IMG/VR virus record: IMGVR_UViG_3300030110_001091 | Location: 1-25,548 of that record | Source: a virus | Reading direction: 5' to 3' (one strand) | Length of the DNA: 25,548 bases | Part shown: piece by piece, positions 7,834 through 25,548 of the stretch | How positions within the stretch are numbered: the stretch's first letter is position 1 | How the letters are laid out: every line of letters begins with the position of its first letter | Made by a program: the position numbers and the translations under genes | The notes under the pieces: model-generated | The model's database searches: none | The model's input: only the letters and a program-made list of their open reading frames with translations | Told to the model about the DNA's origin: nothing

Positions 7834-8886
7834 TTAAGCGTTAGAAACGTTGTTAATTTCTACGTGATATTGTTGTGGACCAAAGTCAAAGCCCATTTCC
7901 ATATACACTGCTTTTGCAATTCTTGCGTTATCATTTTGATCTAAGTCTCTTACAAACATAGTTCCAAAACCTGGTATGTTTAGGAATATTGGTTTGACAA
8001 AAGACATGTCAACGATAAAGTTTTTCTTACCATCATTAGTTCCTGCAGGTAGGAAATCAGACAAAGCTAGTCCGATTGTACCGAAAGGAGTAACGATAGT
8101 ATCTATGTCAACACCACCGACATTTCTGTCTCTAGGTAAGATACCGTAGTTCTTTCCTGATACAACAGTTGCGTTTACCATTTCTTTATTAAGATCAAGT
8201 AAAGCTGTTGGTTGACAGAAAAGTACTAAGTTTCTCATTGGTGCGCCTGCGTCATACAGTTTTTTCATACCTGCTGCAATTACATCAAAGTTAAGTTTTT
8301 GTGCAGTACCTGTTCCATCACCATCTGTGTCGTGATGTATAATGTTGCCGCCTGATAGAGAACAATGTTGATCAAGACCTCTCATTTGACGATTACCTGA
8401 TGTACCGTCATTGTAAGAAGCGTTGAATGCTGACCATTCTACTTTCTTTGCGACTGTTTCTAATACTAATTCCATTTGATAAGCTAGCTCATCATTAATT
8501 GGATTGTTACCTGCTAATGCTAGTGCAGGATCGGAGTTCTTATAGTTCCCTGATAATTGAAAAGGTACGATTTCTCCAGAAGCTGCTTGTGCAGTATATG
8601 ATACTTGTGCTGCTTCGTGGAAAATTTGTAGTGTACCCTGTTGTGCGCTTCTGCTTCTTCCAGAATAGTTAGGCGCTCCGCCTTCATCATCTGGTGTAAC
8701 AGAAGAGACTGTTGCATTATCTTGTGTTTGGAACTGGAAGAATGTTGAGTTTATCGCAACTCCTCCATTAAGTCCGCCTGCAGCAGCTAGCAATGGTGTT
8801 CTATTAGGTGTGATTTTAAATAATTCACCAGTAAAGTTATTAACGTCACTAGCAACTATTGGATTAGCACCTGATATTGCTGCCAT
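7834..8886 (-). CDS. Major capsid protein, SU10-like HK97 fold, 350 aa
   Basis: The N-terminal region (NNFTGELFKITPNRTPLLAA) followed by a Ser/Gln-rich strand region (QIFHEAAQVSYTAQAAS) matches the pattern of the SU10-type major capsid family (DUF5309) as I know it. So do LETVAKKVEWSAFNAS with a later RQMRGLDQ, and the C-terminal FIVDMSFVKPIFLN. Length is typical. It forms the icosahedral shell. The initiation region has AAGGGA about a dozen bases upstream, which is less ideal than at most neighbours. The gene follows the scaffold gene and is followed by the longest hairpin in the window, consistent with a separately regulated, highly expressed capsid transcript. Confidence 0.88.
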   Translation of the reverse strand: MAAISGANPIVASDVNNFTGELFKITPNRTPLLAAAGGLNGGVAINSTFFQFQTQDNATVSSVTPDDEGGAPNYSGRSRSAQQGTLQIFHEAAQVSYTAQAASGEIVPFQLSGNYKNSDPALALAGNNPINDELAYQMELVLETVAKKVEWSAFNASYNDGTSGNRQMRGLDQHCSLSGGNIIHHDTDGDGTGTAQKLNFDVIAAGMKKLYDAGAPMRNLVLFCQPTALLDLNKEMVNATVVSGKNYGILPRDRNVGGVDIDTIVTPFGTIGLALSDFLPAGTNDGKKNFIVDMSFVKPIFLNIPGFGTMFVRDLDQNDNARIAKAVYMEMGFDFGPQQYHVEINNVSNA

Positions 8887-8919: not shown

Positions 8920-9366
8920 TTATTGTTTTTTTAATTCTTCTTGTAAAGCTAATTTTGCTCTAAGACTATCTTTAACAGAAGTGTTATCACTTGCTATAAC
9001 TTCTTGCATTTTCTGTGTCCAATCTTGTGGTTGTGAAGCAACAGAATTTTGTTGTATTGTCTCTAGCTTAGAATCACTATCAGCAATCTTCGCAGCAGCT
9101 ACATCATTGTTCTGCTGTACCTGTGTGTCAATATTGTATGTTTCTTTTAGCCAGGATCCTAGTTCTGCGGTATCTGGTTTTCCATCATAAAGATCAAAAG
9201 CCATCTTACCTGTGCCAGAGTCAGGATCTAATCCAACATCTTTAAACAAAGAAGTCTTTACAACATTCTTTAGTTCTTTATTCTCTTGTTCTACAGATTT
9301 AAGTTTGTCCCTTAAACCTTTTATACCTTCGTTGGTTTCCATGCCGTCCATTGTTTCGTCTGTCAT
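8920..9366 (-). CDS. Capsid scaffolding protein, 148 aa
   Basis: The start is ATG 9366 with GGAG eight bases upstream. The protein is short, acidic and predicted helical. Residues about 14-40 (IKGLRDKLKSVEQENKELKN...) look like a coiled coil. They are followed by LFKDVGLDPDSGTGKMAFDL and YDGKPDTAELGSWLKETY, the 'AG(I/V)D....GK.F...Y.G..d.eaI...A' pattern I associate with scaffolding proteins of actinophages and others. The remainder is Gln/Ser-rich and low in complexity. It lies 33 bases upstream of the major capsid gene, the usual position. Scaffolding proteins template procapsid assembly and then leave or are degraded. No protease motif is seen in it. The call combines position, size and the short signature. 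Confidence 0.78.
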   Translation of the reverse strand: MTDETMDGMETNEGIKGLRDKLKSVEQENKELKNVVKTSLFKDVGLDPDSGTGKMAFDLYDGKPDTAELGSWLKETYNIDTQVQQNNDVAAAKIADSDSKLETIQQNSVASQPQDWTQKMQEVIASDNTSVKDSLRAKLALQEELKKQ

Positions 9367-10997: not shown

Positions 10998-12244
10998 AAC
11001 CCAAACCTTCCTCCGCCAGTTGATCTAGCGCCTGCTTTACCAAATACTCTCTCCATGTCTGATTTAAATTGATCTCTATATGTTTGTGAACCAGTATCTG
11101 CTGCTGCAGCAAATGCGATATCTTTACGTTCTGCTACATCATTAGTCGCAATAAATTGATTCCATTGTGCAGATTGTTCATCTGGTCTTGCACCTGTAAT
11201 ACCTTGCCATTCTGTTCTAAGGTCTGGTGCTATGTCTTCGTATGCTTTAACATTAGTTCCTTCATACTGTGAAAACTTTGCTTGAAATTGATCTTGTAAT
11301 TTAGGTAAAAACTCTTGTGTAAATGCTGTAGGATTATCCTGGTAGTTAGCAAGTAACTGTTCTAAGTTATAGTTATCTGCAACTCCTGGACCTAATATAG
11401 AGTTAATTGTATTCTCCATTGTTCTTGTAAGTTCTATTGTCTCTAATGTTTTACCTTCCAATGCAGCTTTTACTTCTGGATCAAGTGTGTATCTGATTAA
11501 AGGATTAGCTAACTTCTGTAAAGTTTTAGTAATATCATTATCGGTAAATGTACCGTATTGATACTTTTGTGTAATAGTGTCTATAAGTTTAGGATCTAAC
11601 TCTGTTATACCTGCGTCCATCATTCTGCTAATTATGTCTTCTCTTTTCTGTATGCCACGTTGACTAAATGTTGCAGGATCCTGGTGTGCAAATAACATCT
11701 CCTGGCGTTCTGTAGCTGTATGTGTATTCCACCAGGTTGTCTTTGCTAGTTCTGATTCTCTTGCAGTTCTGCCTTCTTTAGCTGCTTCTAGTACAACAGC
11801 AAGGTAATCGTATTGACCTTGTGCATTCTTACTAAATATATAAGGTTTATACCGTGCTTCTGTTTCTAATGATTCTATAAAGTATTCATATCCTGTTGCA
11901 CCTGCTTCAACTTGTCCACGTATAGAAGATAGTTGGTTGTGTGTGCCAAAATAAAAACTATTTATATAATCATCAACGTCTATGTTAGTATCTCCTTCTG
12001 AAGAATATACGTCTCCATCTTTACGTACAATAACATCTGGTACTACTGTTGGCTGCGCTGCTTGTGTAATCTCTTTAAGATCACTAACTTTGTATCTAAA
12101 TGTAAAATTTTCTAATCCAGGAGATAACTGTGCAGTTTCTGGTGGTAATTGATACACCAAATAATATATGCTTTGTCCTGCTTCATTTATTTCTTGCCAT
12201 ACCTGTGTATCGCTAGGAAGTTCTGGTATAAGATTAGCTGCCAT
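10994..12244 (-). CDS. Putative internal virion protein, 416 aa
   Basis: The best start is ATG 12244 (MAANLIPELP), preceded by AGGT at usable spacing and overlapping the lysozyme stop by 11 bases. A TTG at 12256 in the same frame is possible but has no ribosome-binding site. The protein is soluble, mostly helical and rich in Gln, Thr and Glu. A central TTWWNTHTATERQEMLFAHQ segment followed by DPATF resembles a 'WW-x2-T-x3-R ... DPA' pattern I associate with internal virion proteins of marine phages and actinophages. The C-terminus is Gly-rich (GARSTGGGRFGL). No enzymatic motif is seen. It is co-translated with the 426-aa gene through an ATGA overlap. The function assignment rests on neighbourhood and this weak pattern. 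Confidence 0.83.
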   Translation of the reverse strand: MAANLIPELPSDTQVWQEINEAGQSIYYLVYQLPPETAQLSPGLENFTFRYKVSDLKEITQAAQPTVVPDVIVRKDGDVYSSEGDTNIDVDDYINSFYFGTHNQLSSIRGQVEAGATGYEYFIESLETEARYKPYIFSKNAQGQYDYLAVVLEAAKEGRTARESELAKTTWWNTHTATERQEMLFAHQDPATFSQRGIQKREDIISRMMDAGITELDPKLIDTITQKYQYGTFTDNDITKTLQKLANPLIRYTLDPEVKAALEGKTLETIELTRTMENTINSILGPGVADNYNLEQLLANYQDNPTAFTQEFLPKLQDQFQAKFSQYEGTNVKAYEDIAPDLRTEWQGITGARPDEQSAQWNQFIATNDVAERKDIAFAAAADTGSQTYRDQFKSDMERVFGKAGARSTGGGRFGL

Positions 12245-13118
12245 AGATACCTGCAAATGGTTTAAGTTTTTCTATTTTTTTGTCAGCAAATTCAGTCATG
12301 TCTGGTGCTTCTCTTTTCAATTCAGTATATGCGTCTATAAGAACCTTAGCTCTATCTTTAATATTAACAGGCATTTTGTCTCGTAATTCTAATATATGCA
12401 ACATGTCAGCGTTGTTCTTTGCATTCTCTAGCATTACTTGATCTGCATAAGATTTATATACTCTTTTTTCATTAGCTTCTGCAACCATGTCATACAAATC
12501 TTTAAAACCTTGATCACCATTAGGATCATTATAATTTGTGTATGCACGCCAACCTTCTTTACCATTATCGTTATATATTGTTGAAGCTATAAGCATGTGC
12601 TTATCTATGTTGTTTATATCCTTTAAAAATTTAATTGCTTCATCTCTATTCTCCTCAAACAATTGATTACCTAGTGCGTTACGTTCTGCTACTGTTTTTT
12701 CTTTCTTTAACATATCTCTATATTTAGGATCCATAGCCATCATTACGTATGTTTTATTATCTCCACTTACATCTATTTGCATAAGTCCATAACTTTCACC
12801 TCTACCAGGAACGTTGTATTCAGCATGTGCGTTATAAGGTACGTTATTTATATCTAATATCTCACCATCTTTAGTACGATTACTTGCACTTTCAACACCA
12901 AATATTGTGATCAAGTCTTCCATTTCATCTGTTGTGTCGTTATACCACGCAATTTTAGTTCTACCATTTAAATCTGCAGCGCGTGAATCTCTAAAATTAA
13001 TCATAGCTTCCATAATTCTATTAGGATCTACAACACCAATGTTGTTAGACATATACTTTATTTCAGGATATTTATTTCCACCACCTTCTATAACTGGAAA
13101 ATTTCTTGCGTTAAACAT
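12234..13118 (-). CDS. Virion lytic transglycosylase / lysozyme-like protein, 294 aa
   Basis: I place the start at ATG 13118, directly after AGGAGA and one base past the upstream stop. An upstream start at 13169 has no such signal and would add a spurious hydrophobic leader. Lysozyme-fold (SLT-type) signatures are clear: FGVESASN with putative catalytic E76, ESYGLMQI at 108-115, and IYNDNGKEGWRAYT at 181-194, matching the third SLT-type motif. Such enzymes cleave the glycan strands of peptidoglycan. No signal peptide or holin gene adjoins it, and it lies among virion genes. It is therefore more likely a virion-borne enzyme opening the wall for DNA ejection than the lysis endolysin (inference). 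The C-terminal 100 residues are helical and charged and may tether it to the particle. Confidence 0.85.
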   Translation of the reverse strand: MFNARNFPVIEGGGNKYPEIKYMSNNIGVVDPNRIMEAMINFRDSRAADLNGRTKIAWYNDTTDEMEDLITIFGVESASNRTKDGEILDINNVPYNAHAEYNVPGRGESYGLMQIDVSGDNKTYVMMAMDPKYRDMLKKEKTVAERNALGNQLFEENRDEAIKFLKDINNIDKHMLIASTIYNDNGKEGWRAYTNYNDPNGDQGFKDLYDMVAEANEKRVYKSYADQVMLENAKNNADMLHILELRDKMPVNIKDRAKVLIDAYTELKREAPDMTEFADKKIEKLKPFAGIYGS

Positions 13119-13119
13119 A

Positions 13120-16100
13120 TTATCTCCTACCTGGATTGTAGCTAGGAAAATTAGTAGTGTCGCCAACATCTAATGGTTGTCCGTATTTATCTGTAGTTTT
13201 TGGTAATGCTGATTCATATTCATTTTCTATAATTTTAACTAAACCTTTTGTTACGTTTCTATCTCCTGTATACCCTTTTTCTTTTAATTTAGATGATACA
13301 TACATATCACGCTTTACGTTGTATATCCAATCATTTAATCCAAATCCGTCCTTGACAGTATTTAATGCTGACACTGCTGTATCTTTTAAACTGTCAAACA
13401 TACTCATAATTATCTTGTTATTTTTTGCACCATCTAATAATGGATTTACATACGCTTCTTTACCTATTTCAAATGTATCACTTACAGCACCTGCTAATGT
13501 TCCTGGTGTTTCTGGAGATCCGTACATTTGTTCAAATACAGTATCTGTTTCTGTTGGATCGTAGATGTCTTGTGCAACATCTGCAACTGCACCACCTATT
13601 GTGGCTGTCTCACTACCAACGCCTGATACTCTTGACATAAGTAAATCTATTAACACTGGTCCAAATACTGCAGCGTCAAACAAATCTACGCCATTTGCAA
13701 GTGTTCTTGTTAGTCCTGTCGCATTCATAACTTTAGTAACGTCTTGTGGATCTACTTGACCTTCTAAAAGATTCATTACTTTTGTTACTTGCCTCTGTAC
13801 TGTTTCATCTTTTACATCACCAAAAATAGATTGTTGCGCAATCATTGTTCTCAATCCATCAAATTCTTGTAAAAACACACCATCAAGAGGTCTTGGTGCT
13901 ATATTTTCTGGAGATTTAACAAACCTTTCATCATAAATATTTAAATCCTTGTAAAGTTTAGACCAACGTTCTTTAGTTGTCTGTGACAATGTTTCATTGT
14001 TTTTTATTGTTTCTAATGGTATTATTTCTGCAATAGCTTTAATTTCATCGTCAGATAAGTCTGCAAAACTTCTGTTACCGAGTATTACATCATTTAAAAA
14101 TATAGTTCTATCTCCATCTAATTCTACAGATTTAATTTGATATGTAGCTTCTCTTGGAACACCAGTTCCAAATTTATCGCCTGGATCAACAATGCCAAAA
14201 ACATCATGATATGCCAATGCGTCAGCACGACCACCTCCTGTACCTGCAACAATTTCTATACCGCTTTGCGCTAAAGATTTTAACAACAATCTGTCAACAA
14301 ATTGTCCAGATTTTGGTACAGCTTCTACATATTTTTGCGGTAAACCATTTATTCTATTTAAAAAATTTATAAGTGTTTTGTCACCTTCGACATTATTGTT
14401 TAAAGAAAAAACAATATCATCAACTTCTGTATTTATATTTGCAGTAAGAGATTTTACTTCTTTTAGTAAATCTATACCATATTTACTTTTTACTCTCACA
14501 TCATTAGTGCTTGTATATCCTCTTGCTGAATTAGCTAAATCAAACAACAAATCTTCAGTTGGTTCAATTTTATTTTGTACCATGTTTTTTATTATTTGTT
14601 TATAACCAACATTATTTTTGTGGTACTCTATAAAATCCATAAACACTTCTGTGTCTGGACGTACTACCTCCATAAATTTTTGTAAATATAACAAGTCACG
14701 TGTAGCGCTATAGCTACCACCTAAAAATTCTATTGGTAAATTATTTGCAAAATTTAAAGCAACATCAAAATTAATTCTTTTTACATCTGCAAATGTATCA
14801 TTTAAATTTTTAGTAAATAACACATGTCCTGCTGTATTTTTTTGATTAACAAAATAAGTTGGTCTAACTAAATTTCCACCCGCATTAAAAGAACTTACAT
14901 ATTTTAGTGCGTCGTCTAAACCTTGTTGAGATATAGCTTCTTTTGCATATAAATATTGTGGTAAAAATTCATTTAAAGTTCTTAATGAACCTGCGTCGTC
15001 TTTTACAATAGTATTTATTTTATCTTTAAATATTTCTTGTTTATCTTCTAAAGATCTTATATAGTAATCTTTTATTGTTTTTCTTGTTACTGCACCTGTG
15101 CCTTCTGGATCATTTAAAGCTGCTTGCAATTGTAATATAACGTTACTTTGCATTGTTTCGTCTATATATCCAACAGCATTTATTTCGTCTCTTCTCATAA
15201 CTTCCATTAAATTATTAATTAAATCGTCTATTATTGTTTCATCAAAAATATTTTCTGATTGTAAATTACTTAAAACATTTTGTAAAAATTTAGATACATT
15301 AGGATTTTTAAGTTGTCTTGTAATTGGCATGTCGTTATGCAATATAGAATTTGACGGTACATCAAATTTTATTTGTAATACAGCAGGATCAGCTAGTTGT
15401 GGCAATAGACCTGTATCAGCTTCTACAATATTTAAACTACCATTTTGGTCGTGTATAGTTAAATTTAATTTTTTTAAATCTTCTTTAATAGAATTTAATG
15501 TATTAACATCTTCTGGTTTTAAAACATCTGTATGATTTAATATTGCATGAAAAGCAGCAATTGCATTATAATTTTGTGTTGTTACGTTGTTTATATTAAA
15601 ACCACCCATTGAATAAGATGTAGCTAAAAACGGATTAGAAGTTGTGTACATATAATTTAAATTTAACATGTTACCTCTGTATACACGAGGATCTAAAAAA
15701 TTAAGATCAGTTTCAGTTGTAATTTTATTTATTAAACCTTTCATACTGTTTTCAAATTGACCTACTGCTGATGGTGATGTTGATAATGGAATTAAGTTTT
15801 TTTCTAAAATTTCTTTTAAAGCTATTCCTTTAGTATTCAATCCAGATCCTCCGTGATAAACCATACCTGATAATCTGTTGTCCTCTGTCAATTTTAATTT
15901 TTGTGTCTCTAACATTGCTTCTGGCATAGATACATGATTGTCTTTGTAATAATCCCACGAAGGTATATATATTTCTGGTGGGAATGTTCTTGCAAAAAAT
16001 TTATTATTTTTGTTTCTAATGTTTTCTAAAGCATTGCCAACATCATCTCCGTAATTATTTTTTACATAACCAATATTGTCATCTACTGCTGTAGATAAAC

Positions 16101-18723
16101 CCATTTCTGAAATAATAGTGTTACGATCATCTAACTTAACATACTCTGCTAGATCGCTATTACCCCAATTTAAAACAGATATTGCGTCACCGTCAGGTGT
16201 AATTTCTATTTTCAATCCACCTTCTAATAAATTATCTAGAATTAAATTAAAATCTTTGCTTTTTATAATTTGATCTGCATTGTTTGCCATAGCTGCAATG
16301 TAATCACCAATTAACATACCTTGATTAATTTTTGATTTAAGTTTCATTTTATAATTTTTAGATAAATAATCTTTTATTTCAGTCTTTACTTTTCTTCTAC
16401 CTGATGGTGTAAGTTCTAAAGAATCAGCAGCTAAATATTCTCCTGTTTCTCTATATAAATTATTGTCGTCATCAAGAACTTCTACTAAATCTTTAAAACC
16501 TACAAAGTCACTATCATCTACACTTAAAGCATACAAAGATTGATCAGTTAATTCACCAAACAATTCGCTAAAAATAAAATCAGGTTCCATTTGCATTTGT
16601 GCAGTAAATTTGACTGGATTATTACTGTTACTTGTATAGCTTCTTAAACCTCTAATGCTATCTATAAACGCTTTATTTTTACGCTTAACAACAGAATCTA
16701 TATTTTCTGTTGGTATTAATGGTTGATTATTTTGTTTACGTACAACGTTTGCTTTTTTAATTATTTGTGAATTACGTTGTGATGTTTCAAATATACGTTG
16801 ATCTAATTCTGCAATATCTTCGTATGTGTACTTAGAAATATTTTTTAACATTTTTACATTATTAGATTTATTAAACAAATTACTTTTTATTGATGTATTT
16901 AATGCGTCTCTTACAAACTCTACATGACCGAATGCTAATTGTTTTTCACCTGATATAACATCATCAAGTTTTATCCACTCATACGCAATTGCGTCATCTT
17001 TTGCTTTTGGTATCCATTCTTCTACAACAGATGTAACTGGTTGTCCGTCAACAAGATTAGATTCTGTAACATCTTTTATAATTATGCCTACACCACCGAC
17101 ATCTACACCACCTGCTGCCCTTGCGTCCCAATCAAAACGATCATATTTAATTGGTAAATAAAAACTATTTTTTATAAATTTTCTTTTTAAATCTACTTCT
17201 TCTAATGCTTCTCTAAGTGCTTCTGCACCAAATACTTCGTTAGCTCTGTAGTTATCTGTAATGTCTAAAACTACATTTGATTGAAATGGCATTAAGAAAT
17301 CATGTACTTCAGTTGCTCTAAAATTAGGTGCGCCTGGATCTACAACACCTTGTATCATTTGTTCTTTTGTAAGTGATACATCTAATATGCCACCTGGTAA
17401 TGCAAACAAATCTCTATGTGGACCACGTTTACGTTTTATAACAAGCAGCTCAACTGTGCCATCTCCTGCTTCTTTTAAAATTACATTGTCTGCAGTTTGT
17501 ACTTTATCTTTAAACTTGTTATACACAAAGTCATTGTTAACTTCTGCTACATCATCTTTTAAGCTATTTGGTGTATTAGGTGTGTCTACTTCTATTTGTA
17601 AACTTTCTCTTGCAAATCTTGAACTTTTAGGATCACCTTCGTAGTTGTAAAATCCTGCACTTGTATCATCATCAATGTCAAATCCCATACTTTTCCAAAA
17701 ACTTGCACTGTATGCTGATTCTAAAGTTTTATCTAATAAAGTTATTGGTACACCAATTTCATCTGATAATTTTTGTAAAGCAGTAACCATTTTTCTACCA
17801 ATACCTTTACCTTGTGCTTCTGGTTTTAAATAAAATGCTTCAATGTATATTTCATCACCATTTATTATCTGACCATTAGTTAAATCAAAATGTAAACCGC
17901 TACCATCTCCTGCTTCACTTGCAGTGTCATCTAAAAATTGTCCGTATTTTTCTTTAAGGTCGTCAAGAAGTTGCATAACTTTATCTTCGTCATTTATGTC
18001 AGTTTCTAATTGACTTACATTATCAGGCACAACATCTGCTGCTGCAGCTTCTACTGTGTCTGGTACTTCTACATCTCCAGTCAATTCACCGTATTGTGCA
18101 GCTTCTTCTGCGTCAACTTTTTCAAATGCTTCTTTTGCATAAGGTGGAATAAAGTCACGATCTATATCTCTTCTTAATCTGTCAGAAATAACAGGTCCTT
18201 TATTTGTTAATGCCATTTCTATACTTGCCATACTGTTTGGAAATATACTATCTAATGCGTCACCTACTGTTGACACACTTGCAGTTCCACCTCCAGTATC
18301 AATTGTTTTATTAAACAAACTTTCCATTTCTTTTTTTGTAGAAAATTCACCTAAATCTATATCAAAAATTTCATCAATGTCTGGTCTAAATCTATTAGGT
18401 CCACCTACTGATTGTGTATTTTGGTCCATAATTTGTAAACGGAATCCTGTAATTATATCGTCATTTGCTTCACCAGTTAGTGCTTCAATAACTAAATTAA
18501 GATCACTTCTTCCTGCACCAACTAACTCTTCTAAATCATAAGGACCGTAAACTAATAAACCATCTTCTCTAGGCAAGGTGTCCCAGTAATCACTTATATC
18601 TTCTCCAATAAAATCTAATAAATTTTGACCGTCAAAATCTCTATTGTTAACTGTTTCTTTAGTAGCAGTTTCAACTAACTGGTCTAATGCTTGTATTATT
18701 CTTATAAGTTCTTGGGGATCCAC
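13120..18723 (-). CDS. Giant multidomain 'polyvalent'-type protein: GNAT-like, split Nudix-like and ADP-ribosyltransferase-like domains, 1867 aa
   Basis: The start is GTG at 18723, within TAGTG and close behind GGAGGA. Residues 285-360 look like a GNAT acetyltransferase: strand EIYIEAFYLKPEA, then the acetyl-CoA loop QGKGIGRKM (304-312), then a SFWKSMGF element. Residues about 410-605 look like a Nudix hydrolase: FALPGG (440-445) and REALEEV (504-510) carry the two halves of the Nudix box, separated by about 58 residues, so there is an insertion of roughly 40. Residues 953-1045 carry VYHGG (955-959) and YTTSNPFLATSY (1026-1037), the H-Y and TS-P-x2-A-x2-Y pattern of ADP-ribosyltransferase-like domains in phage polyvalent proteins. 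The last 200 residues include a hydrophobic helix (about 1681-1700). I cannot assign residues 1-280 or 1100-1650. I infer an injected effector or counter-defence protein. GNAT and Nudix calls are firmer than the ART call. Confidence 0.88.
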   Translation of the reverse strand: MDPQELIRIIQALDQLVETATKETVNNRDFDGQNLLDFIGEDISDYWDTLPREDGLLVYGPYDLEELVGAGRSDLNLVIEALTGEANDDIITGFRLQIMDQNTQSVGGPNRFRPDIDEIFDIDLGEFSTKKEMESLFNKTIDTGGGTASVSTVGDALDSIFPNSMASIEMALTNKGPVISDRLRRDIDRDFIPPYAKEAFEKVDAEEAAQYGELTGDVEVPDTVEAAAADVVPDNVSQLETDINDEDKVMQLLDDLKEKYGQFLDDTASEAGDGSGLHFDLTNGQIINGDEIYIEAFYLKPEAQGKGIGRKMVTALQKLSDEIGVPITLLDKTLESAYSASFWKSMGFDIDDDTSAGFYNYEGDPKSSRFARESLQIEVDTPNTPNSLKDDVAEVNNDFVYNKFKDKVQTADNVILKEAGDGTVELLVIKRKRGPHRDLFALPGGILDVSLTKEQMIQGVVDPGAPNFRATEVHDFLMPFQSNVVLDITDNYRANEVFGAEALREALEEVDLKRKFIKNSFYLPIKYDRFDWDARAAGGVDVGGVGIIIKDVTESNLVDGQPVTSVVEEWIPKAKDDAIAYEWIKLDDVISGEKQLAFGHVEFVRDALNTSIKSNLFNKSNNVKMLKNISKYTYEDIAELDQRIFETSQRNSQIIKKANVVRKQNNQPLIPTENIDSVVKRKNKAFIDSIRGLRSYTSNSNNPVKFTAQMQMEPDFIFSELFGELTDQSLYALSVDDSDFVGFKDLVEVLDDDNNLYRETGEYLAADSLELTPSGRRKVKTEIKDYLSKNYKMKLKSKINQGMLIGDYIAAMANNADQIIKSKDFNLILDNLLEGGLKIEITPDGDAISVLNWGNSDLAEYVKLDDRNTIISEMGLSTAVDDNIGYVKNNYGDDVGNALENIRNKNNKFFARTFPPEIYIPSWDYYKDNHVSMPEAMLETQKLKLTEDNRLSGMVYHGGSGLNTKGIALKEILEKNLIPLSTSPSAVGQFENSMKGLINKITTETDLNFLDPRVYRGNMLNLNYMYTTSNPFLATSYSMGGFNINNVTTQNYNAIAAFHAILNHTDVLKPEDVNTLNSIKEDLKKLNLTIHDQNGSLNIVEADTGLLPQLADPAVLQIKFDVPSNSILHNDMPITRQLKNPNVSKFLQNVLSNLQSENIFDETIIDDLINNLMEVMRRDEINAVGYIDETMQSNVILQLQAALNDPEGTGAVTRKTIKDYYIRSLEDKQEIFKDKINTIVKDDAGSLRTLNEFLPQYLYAKEAISQQGLDDALKYVSSFNAGGNLVRPTYFVNQKNTAGHVLFTKNLNDTFADVKRINFDVALNFANNLPIEFLGGSYSATRDLLYLQKFMEVVRPDTEVFMDFIEYHKNNVGYKQIIKNMVQNKIEPTEDLLFDLANSARGYTSTNDVRVKSKYGIDLLKEVKSLTANINTEVDDIVFSLNNNVEGDKTLINFLNRINGLPQKYVEAVPKSGQFVDRLLLKSLAQSGIEIVAGTGGGRADALAYHDVFGIVDPGDKFGTGVPREATYQIKSVELDGDRTIFLNDVILGNRSFADLSDDEIKAIAEIIPLETIKNNETLSQTTKERWSKLYKDLNIYDERFVKSPENIAPRPLDGVFLQEFDGLRTMIAQQSIFGDVKDETVQRQVTKVMNLLEGQVDPQDVTKVMNATGLTRTLANGVDLFDAAVFGPVLIDLLMSRVSGVGSETATIGGAVADVAQDIYDPTETDTVFEQMYGSPETPGTLAGAVSDTFEIGKEAYVNPLLDGAKNNKIIMSMFDSLKDTAVSALNTVKDGFGLNDWIYNVKRDMYVSSKLKEKGYTGDRNVTKGLVKIIENEYESALPKTTDKYGQPLDVGDTTNFPSYNPGRR

Positions 18724-20522
18724 TATCCTCCAATCATACGGTCAAATTGATCTATAGAACTAAACAAATAACTCATATCGTTACGTTCTTGTATACCTCT
18801 CTGTTGTGCTGCTTCTTGTGGTGCAAACTTTTCTTCTGCAAATGCAGCAAGCTCTTCACCTGCTGTTGACGGTATAGATATTTCTGTTGGCGCACCAGGA
18901 AATAATTTATTAGCTAAATCTAAATTTTTTTGATACTCTGCAGTAGCTGTATCGTAATCTTTATCTGCTTGTATGTAGAAATCAGAAAACGCTACAAGTT
19001 CTGCGTCTGTAAGTTTACGTGTAACACCTGCAGATTTAAGTGCTGCGTCTACCTGGTCTTTAATAAATCCTGGTGATGGTGTTTGATACACTTTAGGTGT
19101 AAGTGGTGGCTTTTTAAAATAACGTTCCTTTTCTGCATTAAGTTGTGTATATACATCTATCATGTTTAAGTTAGCGTCAACCATTGCACTATACATTGCA
19201 CCTGATGTTTTTTCTTGCCATGCACCTTGCTCTAAAAAATATTCTTCTACGCCTAAATAACCTGCTTGCATAAGATCTGTTTGCACTGCTTTTATTTCTT
19301 GTGGTGCTAATGATATCCAGGATATTTTCTGTGTATTGTTTAGTCCTGGACCTTGACCAGATATGTGATCTGTTGCACCATAAAACTGTTCTTCTGGAAT
19401 ACTACCTGCATATATCTGTTCTGGTAGTAACGCGTCCTTCATCTGTGACGCTGTTGGTTCTCCATCTCTAAATGCGTCTGCTAAATCTGGTTGTTTGTAT
19501 ATTGCATACTCTGGTGTAATACCACCAAATATGTCATACTCTGGTGCAGAAGCTAGATTTGTGTTGTAATCTAACCAACCATCTAATGCTGCTTGTGCTT
19601 CTTCTTTAGTTCCTGGTGTAAATATAATTTCTTTAGAAGGATCTTCTGCAACTTCATCTTCTAACAATGCCAATTCATCTCTACTCAAAGTTTGCACTTC
19701 ACCTACAGATGAACCGTCTGGTTTTCTAATTCCTACAGCTACACTAAATGTATCTCCTATATCTAGGTCTGTATTAAATTTACCTTCAGAACTGTATGAC
19801 TCTACAGCTTTTAAATACTCACCATCTACTGGTTCCCATGTATTTGTTTCTTCATTAAGTTTCATTGCAGGTCTTGTTAATATAGTTGGTTTTGCAAAAC
19901 CAGGATATTTTCTATAGTTCTTACCTTCTACAGGATAAAACCCATCACTTAAATTAACAGGTGCATTGTTTCTAAAGTACTCATCTAAATCTTCTGTAAC
20001 GTATATGGTTCCGCCTTCACCTTGTGGTGGTCGTATAACAGTGCCTAATAAACCTGTATCTTCGTATATCTTATCTAGTTTTGTATTTAAATATTCATAG
20101 TATTCTTCTGAAGCACCTGGACTACCTGCACCTTTTATACCTGCTGCAATATCTAATCCTGCGTATATATCTACGTTTCTCTTGCCATCTTCTTCAGACT
20201 GTATTGTTTTCCAATCTGATACGCCATATAATTGTGACACTGTATTATTTAATGCTTTATTAAAAGTATTAAGTGGTGTACGTGATGATCTTCTTCTGTC
20301 TACTTGTCCATAAGGTTCTTGAAATGATATAAGATCATTAGACATGTCTGCACCTACAGTATCATACACATTTAGTTCTGTGTAGACTTTTGCCATAAAT
20401 ACTTGATCTGGTACTTCTTGACTAACTAAATCTTGTAATATCTTTGTTATTTCTTCGTCTGGTGCAAAACCTCTAAGTGCAATAATGCTATCTACAAAAC
20501 CTTGCTTAAAATCTTTATCCAT
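18723..20522 (-). CDS. Putative internal virion protein, 599 aa, with a weak peptidoglycan-binding-like segment
   Basis: The ATG at 20522 overlaps the upstream stop (TAATG) and follows a GAGGAAA Shine-Dalgarno, so the start is well supported. The protein is acidic and soluble, with no signal peptide or membrane helix. Residues about 402-450 read WISLAPQEIKAVQTDLMQAG, then G-x-W-x3-T-x2-AM. This loosely resembles the 'Q-x2-L-x2-AGY ... G-x2-T-x2-A' spacing of peptidoglycan_binding_1 repeats and of virion proteins I recall from other marine phages. The resemblance is short and could be coincidental. Function is otherwise unknown. It sits between two giant genes in the putative ejection block, which suggests a virion protein. 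The TAG stop shares its final base with the GTG start of the next gene. Confidence 0.85.
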   Translation of the reverse strand: MDKDFKQGFVDSIIALRGFAPDEEITKILQDLVSQEVPDQVFMAKVYTELNVYDTVGADMSNDLISFQEPYGQVDRRRSSRTPLNTFNKALNNTVSQLYGVSDWKTIQSEEDGKRNVDIYAGLDIAAGIKGAGSPGASEEYYEYLNTKLDKIYEDTGLLGTVIRPPQGEGGTIYVTEDLDEYFRNNAPVNLSDGFYPVEGKNYRKYPGFAKPTILTRPAMKLNEETNTWEPVDGEYLKAVESYSSEGKFNTDLDIGDTFSVAVGIRKPDGSSVGEVQTLSRDELALLEDEVAEDPSKEIIFTPGTKEEAQAALDGWLDYNTNLASAPEYDIFGGITPEYAIYKQPDLADAFRDGEPTASQMKDALLPEQIYAGSIPEEQFYGATDHISGQGPGLNNTQKISWISLAPQEIKAVQTDLMQAGYLGVEEYFLEQGAWQEKTSGAMYSAMVDANLNMIDVYTQLNAEKERYFKKPPLTPKVYQTPSPGFIKDQVDAALKSAGVTRKLTDAELVAFSDFYIQADKDYDTATAEYQKNLDLANKLFPGAPTEISIPSTAGEELAAFAEEKFAPQEAAQQRGIQERNDMSYLFSSIDQFDRMIGG

Positions 20523-23500: not shown

Positions 23501-25548
23501 ATAATGTAAATGTGCAACTTCACGCACAATACCATCATCAAAATATTTTTGTATAAGTCTTGGTTTTGTTTCTTTATTACGTAGTGCGTCTTCTTTTGAT
23601 ACAACGTCCATAGGGTGAACGCCAGGTTTTTTCTTTCTTTTACCTGCTCTGTATGCACCACCAAATAAATGATCAAAGTTATTAGATCCATATCTACGTG
23701 AACTAGCTTGCTGCCACTCTAATGCTTCGTCTAATGGATTACCTAACAAATCTGCAAACTGTACATTTTTGCTAGTCCATCTTGCAGCTTCTGTCTTATT
23801 AGGTTTTTTAAGTAATCCTAATGACAATACTGACAAAGGTCGTGAAAATATATTGTCATAACCGCGTGTATACATACGTAGCTGCTCTTCACCTACAACA
23901 CGAAGTAACCAGGCACCACGTAACAATACAAATGGTTTCCAAAAGTCACCGTAGTAACTATCTATAATTTTTGACATAGTTCCTTGTCTTATGTTTGCAG
24001 GTAATTTACTAAACATATCTATACCTGCTTCTGACGCTTTTGCTCTAATTAATGACATAGAGTTCATAGCTTTTGCTAATTGTGTTGGATCAGGTAAAGG
24101 TATTGATCTGTTAATAAATTCTGTTAGTAAATGTGGATCTGGATTTACAAATGCTTTGTTATCAATAATAGTTTGGCTTATCTTTGCACCTGGATTAGCA
24201 ACGTTATTACCTGTTACTGCGTCTATAAAGTATGCACGTAACTCTGGTAAATAATCTTCAAACAACCTGCTAAAAGTAAATGCGTCTTCTTTATTTACAC
24301 CATACTTTTCTACTAAATCATCTGTAGCGTATGTAACCATATCTTTAACAACATTAAACATTCCTGTTTGATCGCCATCTTGTAATCTTATAGCTCTGTT
24401 AATTATCTGATCTTTAGCAACAGGATCTACAGTTGTTTGATCTAACCAACCTTTTATGTTTGTTACTGCGTCATCTATTTGATTACTATCTACATATCTG
24501 TATGGAAACTCTCCTGCGTATGTAGACAATATTCTTGCTGACCTATTAGGACTATCCATAAGTTTTGTCTTAATAACTTTTTTTGCACCAAATAATTTAC
24601 CTGTACCTTTAGGTACGCCACCTAATAATTCTTCTGTAGCACCACCTAAAAATCTACCTATAGCACCTACTGTTGGTGCTTCACCTATACCAAAAGGACC
24701 AAAAGGATCTTCTAAAAATTCTGTTATAAGTCCTGACATCAGTTCACGTTTTTCATCTGCAGATTTTGTAAAATCTTGTGATATATCCATAAATGCTGCA
24801 ATAGCTTCTCTATCATTAATGCCAGTAAGTTCTATAAATTTATTAGGACTATCTAATTCTGACATGTAATTTATAAGTTGTTTACCACCAGGATCTTTAG
24901 ATAAATAATTAGAAATAGATCTTCCAGACATAAACGGTAATCCCCAACCTTTATTAACTGCACCTATGTATTCTTTTTGTGCTTTAGTTAATTTGTCAGG
25001 TTCTATTTTTTGTAATTCTTTTACAAGATAATCTGGTACTTTTAATGATTTTCTACTTTTAGCAAAAGCACCTAATCCTAATGTCATGTAGTTTGCAGGA
25101 TCTAAGAACAATGCTTTACCTGCGTCTAATACACCAGATATAACATTAAATGGTCTACTGTTTGGTTCTGCAACTTGTAATGCAATAGTTCTACCTAATG
25201 ATATAGGTGCAGTTCCGTACTGGCTTGTAATAGTAAAGTTCTCATTACCTTCTTGCATGCTTCTATCTATGTCAGTTATTGGTGTACCTAAATAGTTTTG
25301 TATAACTTGTTGCGCTCTACCTTGATCAAAACCAGAACGTATCATGTACTGGTACTCATCATAAAATTTAGATTGTGGATTCTCTGGATCAAATACTTCT
25401 GACTTTGGTAAGAAACCTTCTCCTATGTTTACTGATTTACCTTTTTGTAATTGTTGAATAGCTTTATTAGCTCTTTTTAAATCTTGTTTTGCTAAACGAA
25501 GTCTATCTGAAGCGGCTTTGGTCTGTTCTTGGTTGAGTTTCTTATAAA
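20522..25548 (-). CDS. Very large virion-associated (ejection-type) protein, 5' truncated by the window edge
   Basis: The reading frame stays open to the right edge, so at least 1674 residues are encoded and the true start lies outside the window. The first in-window ATG, at 25345, is internal: 67 in-frame residues precede it, including a Lys/Gln-rich helical stretch that looks like coiled coil (about 25430-25546). Other visible features are a basic KRKKK patch (near 23635), a second charged coiled-coil region (about 22450-22620), and a hydrophobic Gly/Ala/Pro stretch (about 21830-21895) that could contact a membrane. I do not recognise a catalytic domain. Size, hydrophobic patches and position at the head of a block containing a virion lysozyme fit a large internal or ejected virion protein, analogous in role to T7 gp16. 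That role is inferred, not shown by homology. The gene ends in TAATG, sharing a base with the next start. Confidence 0.85.
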   Translation of the reverse strand, partial: YKKLNQEQTKAASDRLRLAKQDLKRANKAIQQLQKGKSVNIGEGFLPKSEVFDPENPQSKFYDEYQYMIRSGFDQGRAQQVIQNYLGTPITDIDRSMQEGNENFTITSQYGTAPISLGRTIALQVAEPNSRPFNVISGVLDAGKALFLDPANYMTLGLGAFAKSRKSLKVPDYLVKELQKIEPDKLTKAQKEYIGAVNKGWGLPFMSGRSISNYLSKDPGGKQLINYMSELDSPNKFIELTGINDREAIAAFMDISQDFTKSADEKRELMSGLITEFLEDPFGPFGIGEAPTVGAIGRFLGGATEELLGGVPKGTGKLFGAKKVIKTKLMDSPNRSARILSTYAGEFPYRYVDSNQIDDAVTNIKGWLDQTTVDPVAKDQIINRAIRLQDGDQTGMFNVVKDMVTYATDDLVEKYGVNKEDAFTFSRLFEDYLPELRAYFIDAVTGNNVANPGAKISQTIIDNKAFVNPDPHLLTEFINRSIPLPDPTQLAKAMNSMSLIRAKASEAGIDMFSKLPANIRQGTMSKIIDSYYGDFWKPFVLLRGAWLLRVVGEEQLRMYTRGYDNIFSRPLSVLSLGLLKKPNKTEAARWTSKNVQFADLLGNPLDEALEWQQASSRRYGSNNFDHLFGGAYRAGKRKKKPGVHPMDVVSKEDALRNKETKPRLIQKYFDDGIVREVAHLHYDRLFNFLYRGALTKKQRDTRLKEFVEGTSSRAQDVIEAYSAGGPTYRSRMNTAGGRYAYAESITARVNQLAGGSFDQNLDVLDDLGKRINIDDLDFAKTPFPLSVEKTANNNILEMLLRNRLNRLDGNQFATETLDDFFDSIKNGDQTLYKQVKKTLLSDDYIDDLPNIVAVGKTDYIDDVGKLEFYTNKAFDALMGQRTDNASRSPVFRQAYWRTIYDMLPYMSGKMRKVMLEGGTYTVDGKEFKVAGAMNASLPGENMLATFRSDIGLPAQKLRKADTEINIDMFQRKIKELNEKDSTLGVGFEDLDEEFENLSTALNRKRSRLEGKLTDKQEELMKLELDITGTYGSGVTYEDDIVPANIKQRVDDLAEDIFDIESEIDDVQDVFNANMQEKAELLGFTDKSGDVDLIDRIAKARALTEVQELLYDLTKRKKLAYNLRGIFPFGEAYIEIMTTWAKLLKENPEILRRGQVTVNAARASNKFSPVEGEGFLGEDEVTGEEVFYYPLIDDLVSDGLFGEDRNVGVRLPGYAGSLNLALEVVPGIGPAVAIPASFFVNASPTFDEAKKVLFPYGLPDVRSAGDLIAAAGVPAWLRNTYQALYAYNEDVGQNEITRIASNTTIDVYRILKADGRDDRTAGQQDELMKEARSIAKNLTLIKAISQFVGPVGLNPRFDIGNDKNAGHVYSMQILSDRYRELLETPPKDSITGKFLYAPGDNYSATKYFIDEFGFNPIDIATPKTVVIEPRPVDERGVKFQKDNPEIFEQYSFTAQYAIPQGGGGPFDYEAYVRTIANEQREPLKPEEWLAKRNQRLGQFYMEEKRVSTLQKYDITDPYQNLVRNRELAFNRDLAKQKFPGFDATVPGLPQTSTLEMQYDELKDWKNSSKLSATPVGKDLQVVFSLINTLEKRSLRSGLSKNGWRTSRTLLKERQQLRDLIGTLINSNPDFQVVAERVLLPLFQERTDFLEDLQYDYDTLKEYGVYLPQAPDTEEI

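What the first reader, a model, noticed from the sequence alone, without database searches (positions are those of the whole stretch)
13120..18723. Giant phage protein combining GNAT, Nudix and ADP-ribosyltransferase-like domains: candidate injected effector
One 1867-aa protein carries an acetyl-CoA loop (QGKGIGRKM, 304-312), both halves of a Nudix box (FALPGG, REALEEV) and an ART-like pattern (VYHGG, then YTTSNPFLATSY), with about 1000 residues unassigned. It sits between large ejection-type proteins and a virion lysozyme. Phage polyvalent proteins (large multidomain proteins delivered with DNA to counter host defences or modify host targets) are known to mix ART and other small enzymatic domains. 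An ART that uses NAD, with a Nudix that could cleave ADP-ribose-type products, would make a self-contained NAD-signalling or NAD-defence interference module. The combination and the host setting may be undescribed.
Basis: partly seen in the sequence, partly recalled or inferred. Interest (0 to 1): 0.78.

Follow-up and report, generated by a model that had tools for sequence, protein, structure and literature searches.

The report
Mosaic phage effector: Nudix, GNAT, ART-like
An uncultivated virus of bacteria encodes, among its particle-building genes, one giant protein that joins an ADP-ribose-cutting (Nudix) enzyme, a swappable acetyltransferase and a probable NAD-using ADP-ribosyltransferase, which looks like a delivered weapon against the host's NAD chemistry but has not been tested.

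Summary
The 1867-aa ORF lies on the minus strand, and all quoted motifs are at the stated residues. GNAT is real (Pfam above cut-off). Nudix is real: all 18 aligned relatives match Pfam NUDIX, the profile finds only Nudix proteins in the PDB, and the AlphaFold2 model best matches the NrtR Nudix domain bound to ADP-ribose and NadM ADP-ribose pyrophosphatases. Its metal-binding glutamates are invariant. The ART is only partly supported: H957 and Y1026 motifs match ART-PolyVal profiles above background and are invariant, but the proposed third residue, E1490, lies beyond a ~350-aa helical insert and rests on conservation and strand order alone. No fold search recovered an ART.

The gene sits between portal and scaffold/capsid genes. 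Relatives show a mosaic: the Nudix is the constant part, kept even in 500-630-aa short forms, while GNAT moves as a cassette (85-91% DNA identity where the Nudix is 55-69%). Best reading: a polyvalent-type effector delivered with the genome, whose core job is ADP-ribose/NAD hydrolysis. GNAT+ART polyvalent proteins are published; I found no phage precedent for ART+Nudix in one polypeptide. New variant of a known kind. Virion presence and activity are untested.

The parts
13120..18723 (-). Whole effector gene, 1867 aa, GTG start
   Evidence: 13 IMG/VR relatives by its own search, 29 loci with the alignment
18028..18723 (-). N-terminal module 1 (residues 1-232), unknown function, exchangeable
   Evidence: present in L002, L008, L010, L021, L037 and absent from others; also heads other large proteins without a detected Nudix, L101-L103
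17608..17997 (-). GNAT cassette (residues 243-372; Pfam core 288-348; acetyl-CoA loop QGKGIG 304-309)
   Evidence: above gathering score; 85-91% nt identity in carriers whose Nudix is 55-69%
16894..17535 (-). Nudix domain (residues 397-610), NadM/NrtR-type ADP-ribose pyrophosphatase-like, with an insert between ALPGG and the Nudix helix
   Evidence: invariant E505, E508, E509, DDA 576-578, AFGH 597-600
17188..17232 (-). Nudix helix (residues 498-512, FGAEALREALEEVDL)
15334..15891 (-). ART-like part 1 (residues 945-1130): VYHGG with H957, MYTTSNPFLATSY with Y1026, third strand VLQIKFDVP
14299..15303 (-). Variable, almost all-helical insert (residues 1141-1475)
   Evidence: AlphaFold2 secondary structure; poorly conserved
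14122..14298 (-). Proposed ART-like part 2 (residues 1476-1534): GIEIVAGTGGG with invariant E1490, HDVFGIVDPGDK
   Evidence: invariance and strand prediction; not supported by profile comparison
13123..13743 (-). Conserved C-terminal region (residues 1661-1867), possible virion-association part
   Evidence: kept in all 17 full-length relatives; function inferred
12234..13169 (-). 311-aa protein with a lytic-transglycosylase-like motif (E93-S94, SYGLMQID)
   Evidence: no family or PDB support
18723..20522 (-). 599-aa upstream gene, probable virion protein, function unknown
   Evidence: same place in L008, L034 and L045
20522..25546 (-). >=1674-aa upstream giant gene, probable virion protein, function unknown
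   Evidence: (phrog_10618)
8920..9366 (-). Probable scaffold gene
   Evidence: phrog_206 head scaffolding, weak
7834..8886 (-). Major capsid protein
   Evidence: phrog_1328, 7e-37

Best explanation
This is a polyvalent-type phage effector, made late with the head proteins, packaged, and delivered with the DNA. Its constant core is a catalytically competent Nudix hydrolase of the NadM/NrtR type that should split ADP-ribose (and possibly NAD or related NDP-X molecules) soon after entry, blunting ADP-ribose-based host alarms or toxins and/or clearing ADP-ribose produced by its own partner domain. An ART-like domain with an H957-Y1026-(E1490) site, interrupted by a helical insert, would use NAD to ADP-ribosylate a host target. 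A GNAT cassette, exchanged between phages, would acetylate a host protein or small molecule. Shown by computation: ORF, GNAT, Nudix fold and intact site, location, mosaic exchange. Supported but not settled: ART. Inferred: virion packaging, injection, substrates, host targets.
For: GNAT above Pfam cut-off. Nudix: Pfam in 18/18 aligned members; above cut-off in relatives L034 (25.0 vs 21.1 bits) and L038 (34.8 vs 21.1); profile against the PDB finds 9 sequences, all from the Nudix superfamily, led by 2fml (9e-9), NrtR and NadM, with the DDA..W and/or LAF.H motifs co-linear in the printed alignments; AF2 model best hits are the NrtR Nudix with ADP-ribose (E 2.5e-6, TM 0.75) and NadM ADP-ribose pyrophosphatase; E505, E508, E509 invariant. 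ART: H957, Y1026, E1490 are among 21 invariant columns of 825; H segment scores 21.6 against ART-PolyVal versus 9.2 +/- 2.1 (max 15.0) for 67 other windows of the same family, Y segment 15.1; strand order in the AF2 model is compatible. Location between portal and capsid, same order in relatives. Cassette exchange. Polyvalent proteins: multi-enzyme, virion-borne, ART the commonest modifier, GNAT often beside ART (PMC5512222).
Against: No fold search recovered an ART; Pfam ART-PolyVal does not match the window record or 12 related virus records; the E1490 segment has no profile support. No proteomics and no isolate: tblastn finds no match in 50,697 phage records. Nudix enzymes use many substrates, and some NrtR-type domains sense rather than hydrolyse (own knowledge). 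The host is unknown.
Confidence: 0.6

Rival explanations
1. The middle region is not an ART. The effector is a Nudix hydrolase with optional GNAT, and residues 900-1560 are a structural or unknown domain whose YHGG and YTTSNPF motifs are coincidental.
For: No ART in Pfam, PDB or BFVD searches; E segment unsupported; short forms without this region exist at the same locus.
Against: H and Y segments score above all 67 same-family windows against ART-PolyVal, in register and order, though the Y segment only just; H, Y and a later E are invariant across relatives of 17-81% identity; predicted strand order fits.
Confidence: 0.25
2. It is mainly an internal virion or ejection protein; the enzymatic domains are minor or degenerate.
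For: Size, position between portal and capsid genes, conserved C-terminus.
Against: Nudix metal-binding residues are invariant in 18 sequences and the Nudix is kept in the short forms, so selection keeps the catalytic chemistry. N-terminal cassettes come and go, which is unlike a structural part.
Confidence: 0.15
3. The Nudix domain binds ADP-ribose as a sensor (NrtR-like) and controls the other domains instead of hydrolysing it.
For: Closest structural match is the NrtR Nudix with ADP-ribose bound.
Against: The Nudix helix glutamates E505, E508, E509 are all retained; no DNA-binding domain was detected; the NadM hydrolases match nearly as well.
Confidence: 0.08
4. The Nudix acts on another substrate, such as NAD caps of RNA, dinucleoside polyphosphates or NDP-sugars, to alter host RNA or metabolism.
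For: Broad substrate range of Nudix enzymes (PMC9503650); NudC and Ap4A hydrolases appear lower in the structural list.
Against: Best matches and the DDA..W / LAF.H motifs are those of ADP-ribose pyrophosphatases and NrtR.
Confidence: 0.15

Closest known systems
Phage polyvalent proteins (Iyer et al. 2017, PMC5512222)
   Same: Very large, multi-enzyme, encoded with head genes; GNAT beside ART is described there
   Different: No ART-PolyVal Pfam match here; Nudix as the constant core with ART and GNAT in one phage polypeptide is not described in the passages I read (NUDIX is mentioned once, linked to InPase and GNAT)
NadM NMNAT/ADP-ribose pyrophosphatase and NrtR Nudix domains (PDB 2qjt, 2r5w, 2qjo, 3gz8)
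   Same: Nudix fold, Nudix helix, DDA..W and LAF.H motifs
   Different: Insert of varying length (about 50 aa in the window protein) between ALPGG and the helix; no adenylyltransferase or DNA-binding domain detected; embedded in an 1867-aa phage protein
ART-PolyVal (Pfam PF18760; Roseovarius Plymouth podovirus 1 vRNAP, residues 1023-1096)
   Same: YHG motif and the (F/Y)-x-T...A-x-x-Y motif in order
   Different: Below Pfam detection; H-to-Y spacing about twice as long; large helical insert before the proposed third residue, which is E rather than the D reported for polyvalent ARTs
Tunturiibacter phage Tunturi_5 gp321 (XOB77764.1)
   Same: 1362-aa protein among head/tail genes with ART-PolyVal (three stretches) and GNAT
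   Different: Has SprT-like and 2H/Acb1-like domains; its 'MutT/NUDIX' label found no support in Pfam or PHROGs
KptA ART-Nudix fusion of Bodo saltans virus (reported in PMC9503650)
   Same: An ART-superfamily domain and a Nudix in one viral protein
   Different: Giant virus of a eukaryote, KptA-type ART, RNA-repair setting

Membership tests
Phage polyvalent effector proteins | Two or more unrelated enzymatic domains in one large phage polypeptide | tested here: met
   GNAT and Nudix confirmed in one ORF
Phage polyvalent effector proteins | Encoded with virion/head genes | tested here: met
   Between portal and scaffold/capsid
Phage polyvalent effector proteins | Packaged in the virion and delivered to the host | not testable with these tools
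   Needs virion proteomics
GNAT acetyltransferases | Pfam match above cut-off and acetyl-CoA loop Q/R-x-x-G-x-G/A | tested here: met
   PF00583 29.4 vs 20.7 bits; QGKGIG 304-309
Nudix hydrolases | Nudix fold and Nudix helix REx2EE | tested here: met
   the first conserved E of the box is displaced by the insert
NadM/NrtR-type ADP-ribose pyrophosphatases | Closest sequence and structure neighbours, DDA..W and LAF.H motifs | tested here: met
NadM/NrtR-type ADP-ribose pyrophosphatases | Hydrolysis of ADP-ribose | not testable with these tools
   Needs enzyme assay
ART-PolyVal / ART superfamily | Pfam PF18760 match above cut-off | tested here: not met
   No match in the window record or 12 related records; positive control RPP1 rings at 1.5e-11
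ART-PolyVal / ART superfamily | Strand-1 H and strand-2 Y motifs | tested here: met
   Invariant and above 67 same-family windows, the Y segment narrowly
ART-PolyVal / ART superfamily | Third residue (D/E) on the fifth strand next to H and Y | tested here: inconclusive
   E1490 invariant and next to a predicted strand; no profile support; coordinates not available
ART-PolyVal / ART superfamily | ART fold by structure comparison | tested here: inconclusive
   No significant Foldseek match, PDB or BFVD; the helical insert dominates the model

The most novel reading that the evidence does not exclude
A virion-delivered, self-contained NAD module: an insert-split ART and an ADP-ribose pyrophosphatase in one phage polypeptide, in which the phage modifies a host target with NAD and at the same time destroys ADP-ribose signals, with further effector domains plugged in and swapped at an N-terminal cassette site between phages.
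Probability: 0.3. Interest if true: 0.75.

Novelty: new variant of a known kind. Interest (0 to 1): 0.5.

Why it matters
NAD and ADP-ribose chemistry is central to bacterial anti-phage immunity. A single delivered protein carrying an ADP-ribose pyrophosphatase as constant core would be a direct, testable way for a phage to act before its genes are expressed. The relatives give natural versions with and without GNAT and ART, so the job of each part can be separated. Nudix is rare in small phages (0.25%, PMC9503650).

Tried and rejected
(1) tblastn of the whole protein and of the Nudix domain against 50,697 phage records: no match. (2) Foldseek of the ART-region model against PDB and BFVD: no significant match; some BFVD rows are named ART-PolyVal-like but at E about 1, not used as evidence. 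(3) Profile of the ART region against PDB sequences: only chance hits. (4) Actinobacterial host by WhiB: none in 11 related records; MCP and portal resemble actinobacteriophages only at about 26-33% identity, so the host is left open. (5) Tunturi_5 gp321 as an ART+Nudix precedent: Nudix label not supported. (6) 'Virion lysozyme': motif only. (7) The GNAT cassette's weak hit to the Pokken virion RNA polymerase (E 3e-3) is a lead, not evidence. (8) PADLOC: nothing. (9) The Rhodobacteraceae MAG contig L045 carries a near copy of the L010 protein in the same gene order, most likely a phage contig binned into the MAG; not taken as a host.

Full report
What is there. The 1867-aa ORF runs on the minus strand from GTG 18723 to the stop at 13120, with GGAGG just upstream of the start. 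The record is a 28,188-base uncultivated virus contig. Upstream lie a 599-aa gene, a >=1674-aa giant gene and, beyond the window, a portal gene; downstream a 311-aa protein, two ~420-aa proteins, a probable scaffold and the major capsid protein. Relatives L008, L034 and L045 keep this order as far as they reach.

Domains. GNAT 288-348 is above Pfam's curated cut-off. Nudix is weak in the window protein alone (E 0.17 whole protein; 0.0011 for the domain alone, just under the cut-off), but every one of 18 aligned relatives matches Pfam NUDIX, best 3.5e-9, two above the cut-off as whole proteins. The family profile against the PDB returns nine sequences, all Nudix-superfamily proteins: Enterococcus 2fml, Shewanella NrtR, NadM bifunctional enzymes and others. 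AlphaFold2 of residues 243-660 best matches the NrtR Nudix with ADP-ribose (E 2.5e-6, TM 0.75 on the target) and NadM ADP-ribose pyrophosphatases. The Nudix glutamates are invariant, as are DDA 576-578 and AFGH 597-600. In the long forms an insert of varying length separates ALPGG from the helix; short relatives (L038, L039, L043) have a nearly canonical box. NadM-type is one of the two major phage Nudix clades reported in PMC9503650.

ART. Pfam ART-PolyVal does not match the window record or 12 related records, though the control (RPP1 vRNAP) rings. I assembled 15 ART-PolyVal-type domains (RPP1 vRNAP, 13 phage hits, one bacterial genome hit) and compared profiles. The H segment (945-980) scores 21.6 and the Y segment (1015-1050) 15.1, against 9.2 +/- 2.1 and a maximum of 15.0 for 67 other windows of the same family; both align in register. 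The E segment (1476-1525) scores 8.5, no support. AlphaFold2 of 895-1560 (mean pLDDT 79, pTM 0.70) predicts strands at H957, Y1026, 1111-1123, 1491-1495 and 1507-1511, with 1141-1475 almost all helical. H957, Y1026 and E1490 are among only 21 invariant columns of 825, but E1490 was picked after seeing this. Fold searches gave nothing significant. I rate an ART at about 0.7.

Mosaic evolution. In relatives the stretch from the Nudix to the C-terminus is the constant scaffold, and the N-terminus is a cassette site: module 1, GNAT, a second unrelated module (L007, L009) and others. L034 carries two GNATs. GNAT is 85-91% identical in DNA between the window and L033, L031, L034 and L035, whose Nudix domains are 55-60% identical in DNA; at fourfold sites in L031, L033 and L034 the GNAT figure is 81-86% against 47-59%. 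This indicates exchange rather than only constraint. The C-terminus also recombines: L008 is 93% in DNA there against 74% in the Nudix, L007 62% against 94%. A linker like VPDTVEAAAADVVPD recurs at junctions. Short proteins of 500-630 aa at the same locus keep the Nudix and lack GNAT and the ART region. Module 1 and GNAT also occur in other large proteins without detected Nudix.

Interpretation. The sum fits the polyvalent-protein class (PMC5512222), which already includes GNAT next to ART. What differs is a constant NadM-type Nudix. I found no phage protein in the held collections or papers with ART and Nudix together; a KptA-Nudix fusion is reported for a giant virus. Since the Nudix survives where other modules are lost, ADP-ribose/NAD hydrolysis is the most likely primary task; ART and GNAT are cargo. 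Packaging and injection are inferred from position and class only.

Limits. The host is unknown, no isolate exists in the collections searched, model coordinates could not be read, and no activity was tested.

Noticed in passing
L102:2986-6069 (+), also L103: 1028-aa protein with module 1 of the window protein, then a stretch with ART-like look (IWRAT...YFSATPEYADEY...) and a divergent GNAT-like stretch, no Nudix; Pfam finds nothing in it at E 0.05.
   Followed up: partly
L098:1489-6375 and L096:1540-4890: Other very large phage proteins with two or more GNAT-like stretches, one of them 57-71% identical to the window's GNAT cassette, and no detected Nudix.
   Followed up: partly
window 25540-25548 and L015:5493-6086: The upstream giant gene is interrupted in this assembly by a short run of N just past the window end; relative L008 has an intact 1796-aa version.
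   Followed up: no
L045 (NZVE01000026.1): Contig in a Rhodobacteraceae MAG carries a near copy of the L010 effector in the same gene order; probably a phage contig binned into the MAG.
   Followed up: no
L072 (PP885688.1, Tunturi_5 gp321): Labelled MutT/NUDIX hydrolase, but scans show three ART-PolyVal stretches, GNAT, a SprT-like domain and a 2H/Acb1-like domain instead.
   Followed up: yes
L074 (PQ492659.1): Limnohabitans phage DC33 is filed under Inoviridae, yet it is 39 kb with a 9.4-kb gene holding an ART-PolyVal-like domain; the taxonomy looks wrong.
   Followed up: no
L082 (MH460462.1, Dickeya phage JA33): A gene labelled putative SAM-dependent methyltransferase matches an ART-PolyVal-type domain near its start.
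   Followed up: no
window 614-886 (-): 90-aa protein matches a PHROG labelled nuclease (1e-21) but its sequence looks hydrophobic, more like a membrane protein.
   Followed up: no
window 1-564 (-): Protein ending in threonine/serine-rich TTTTSSTTTT repeats, cut by the contig end.
   Followed up: no
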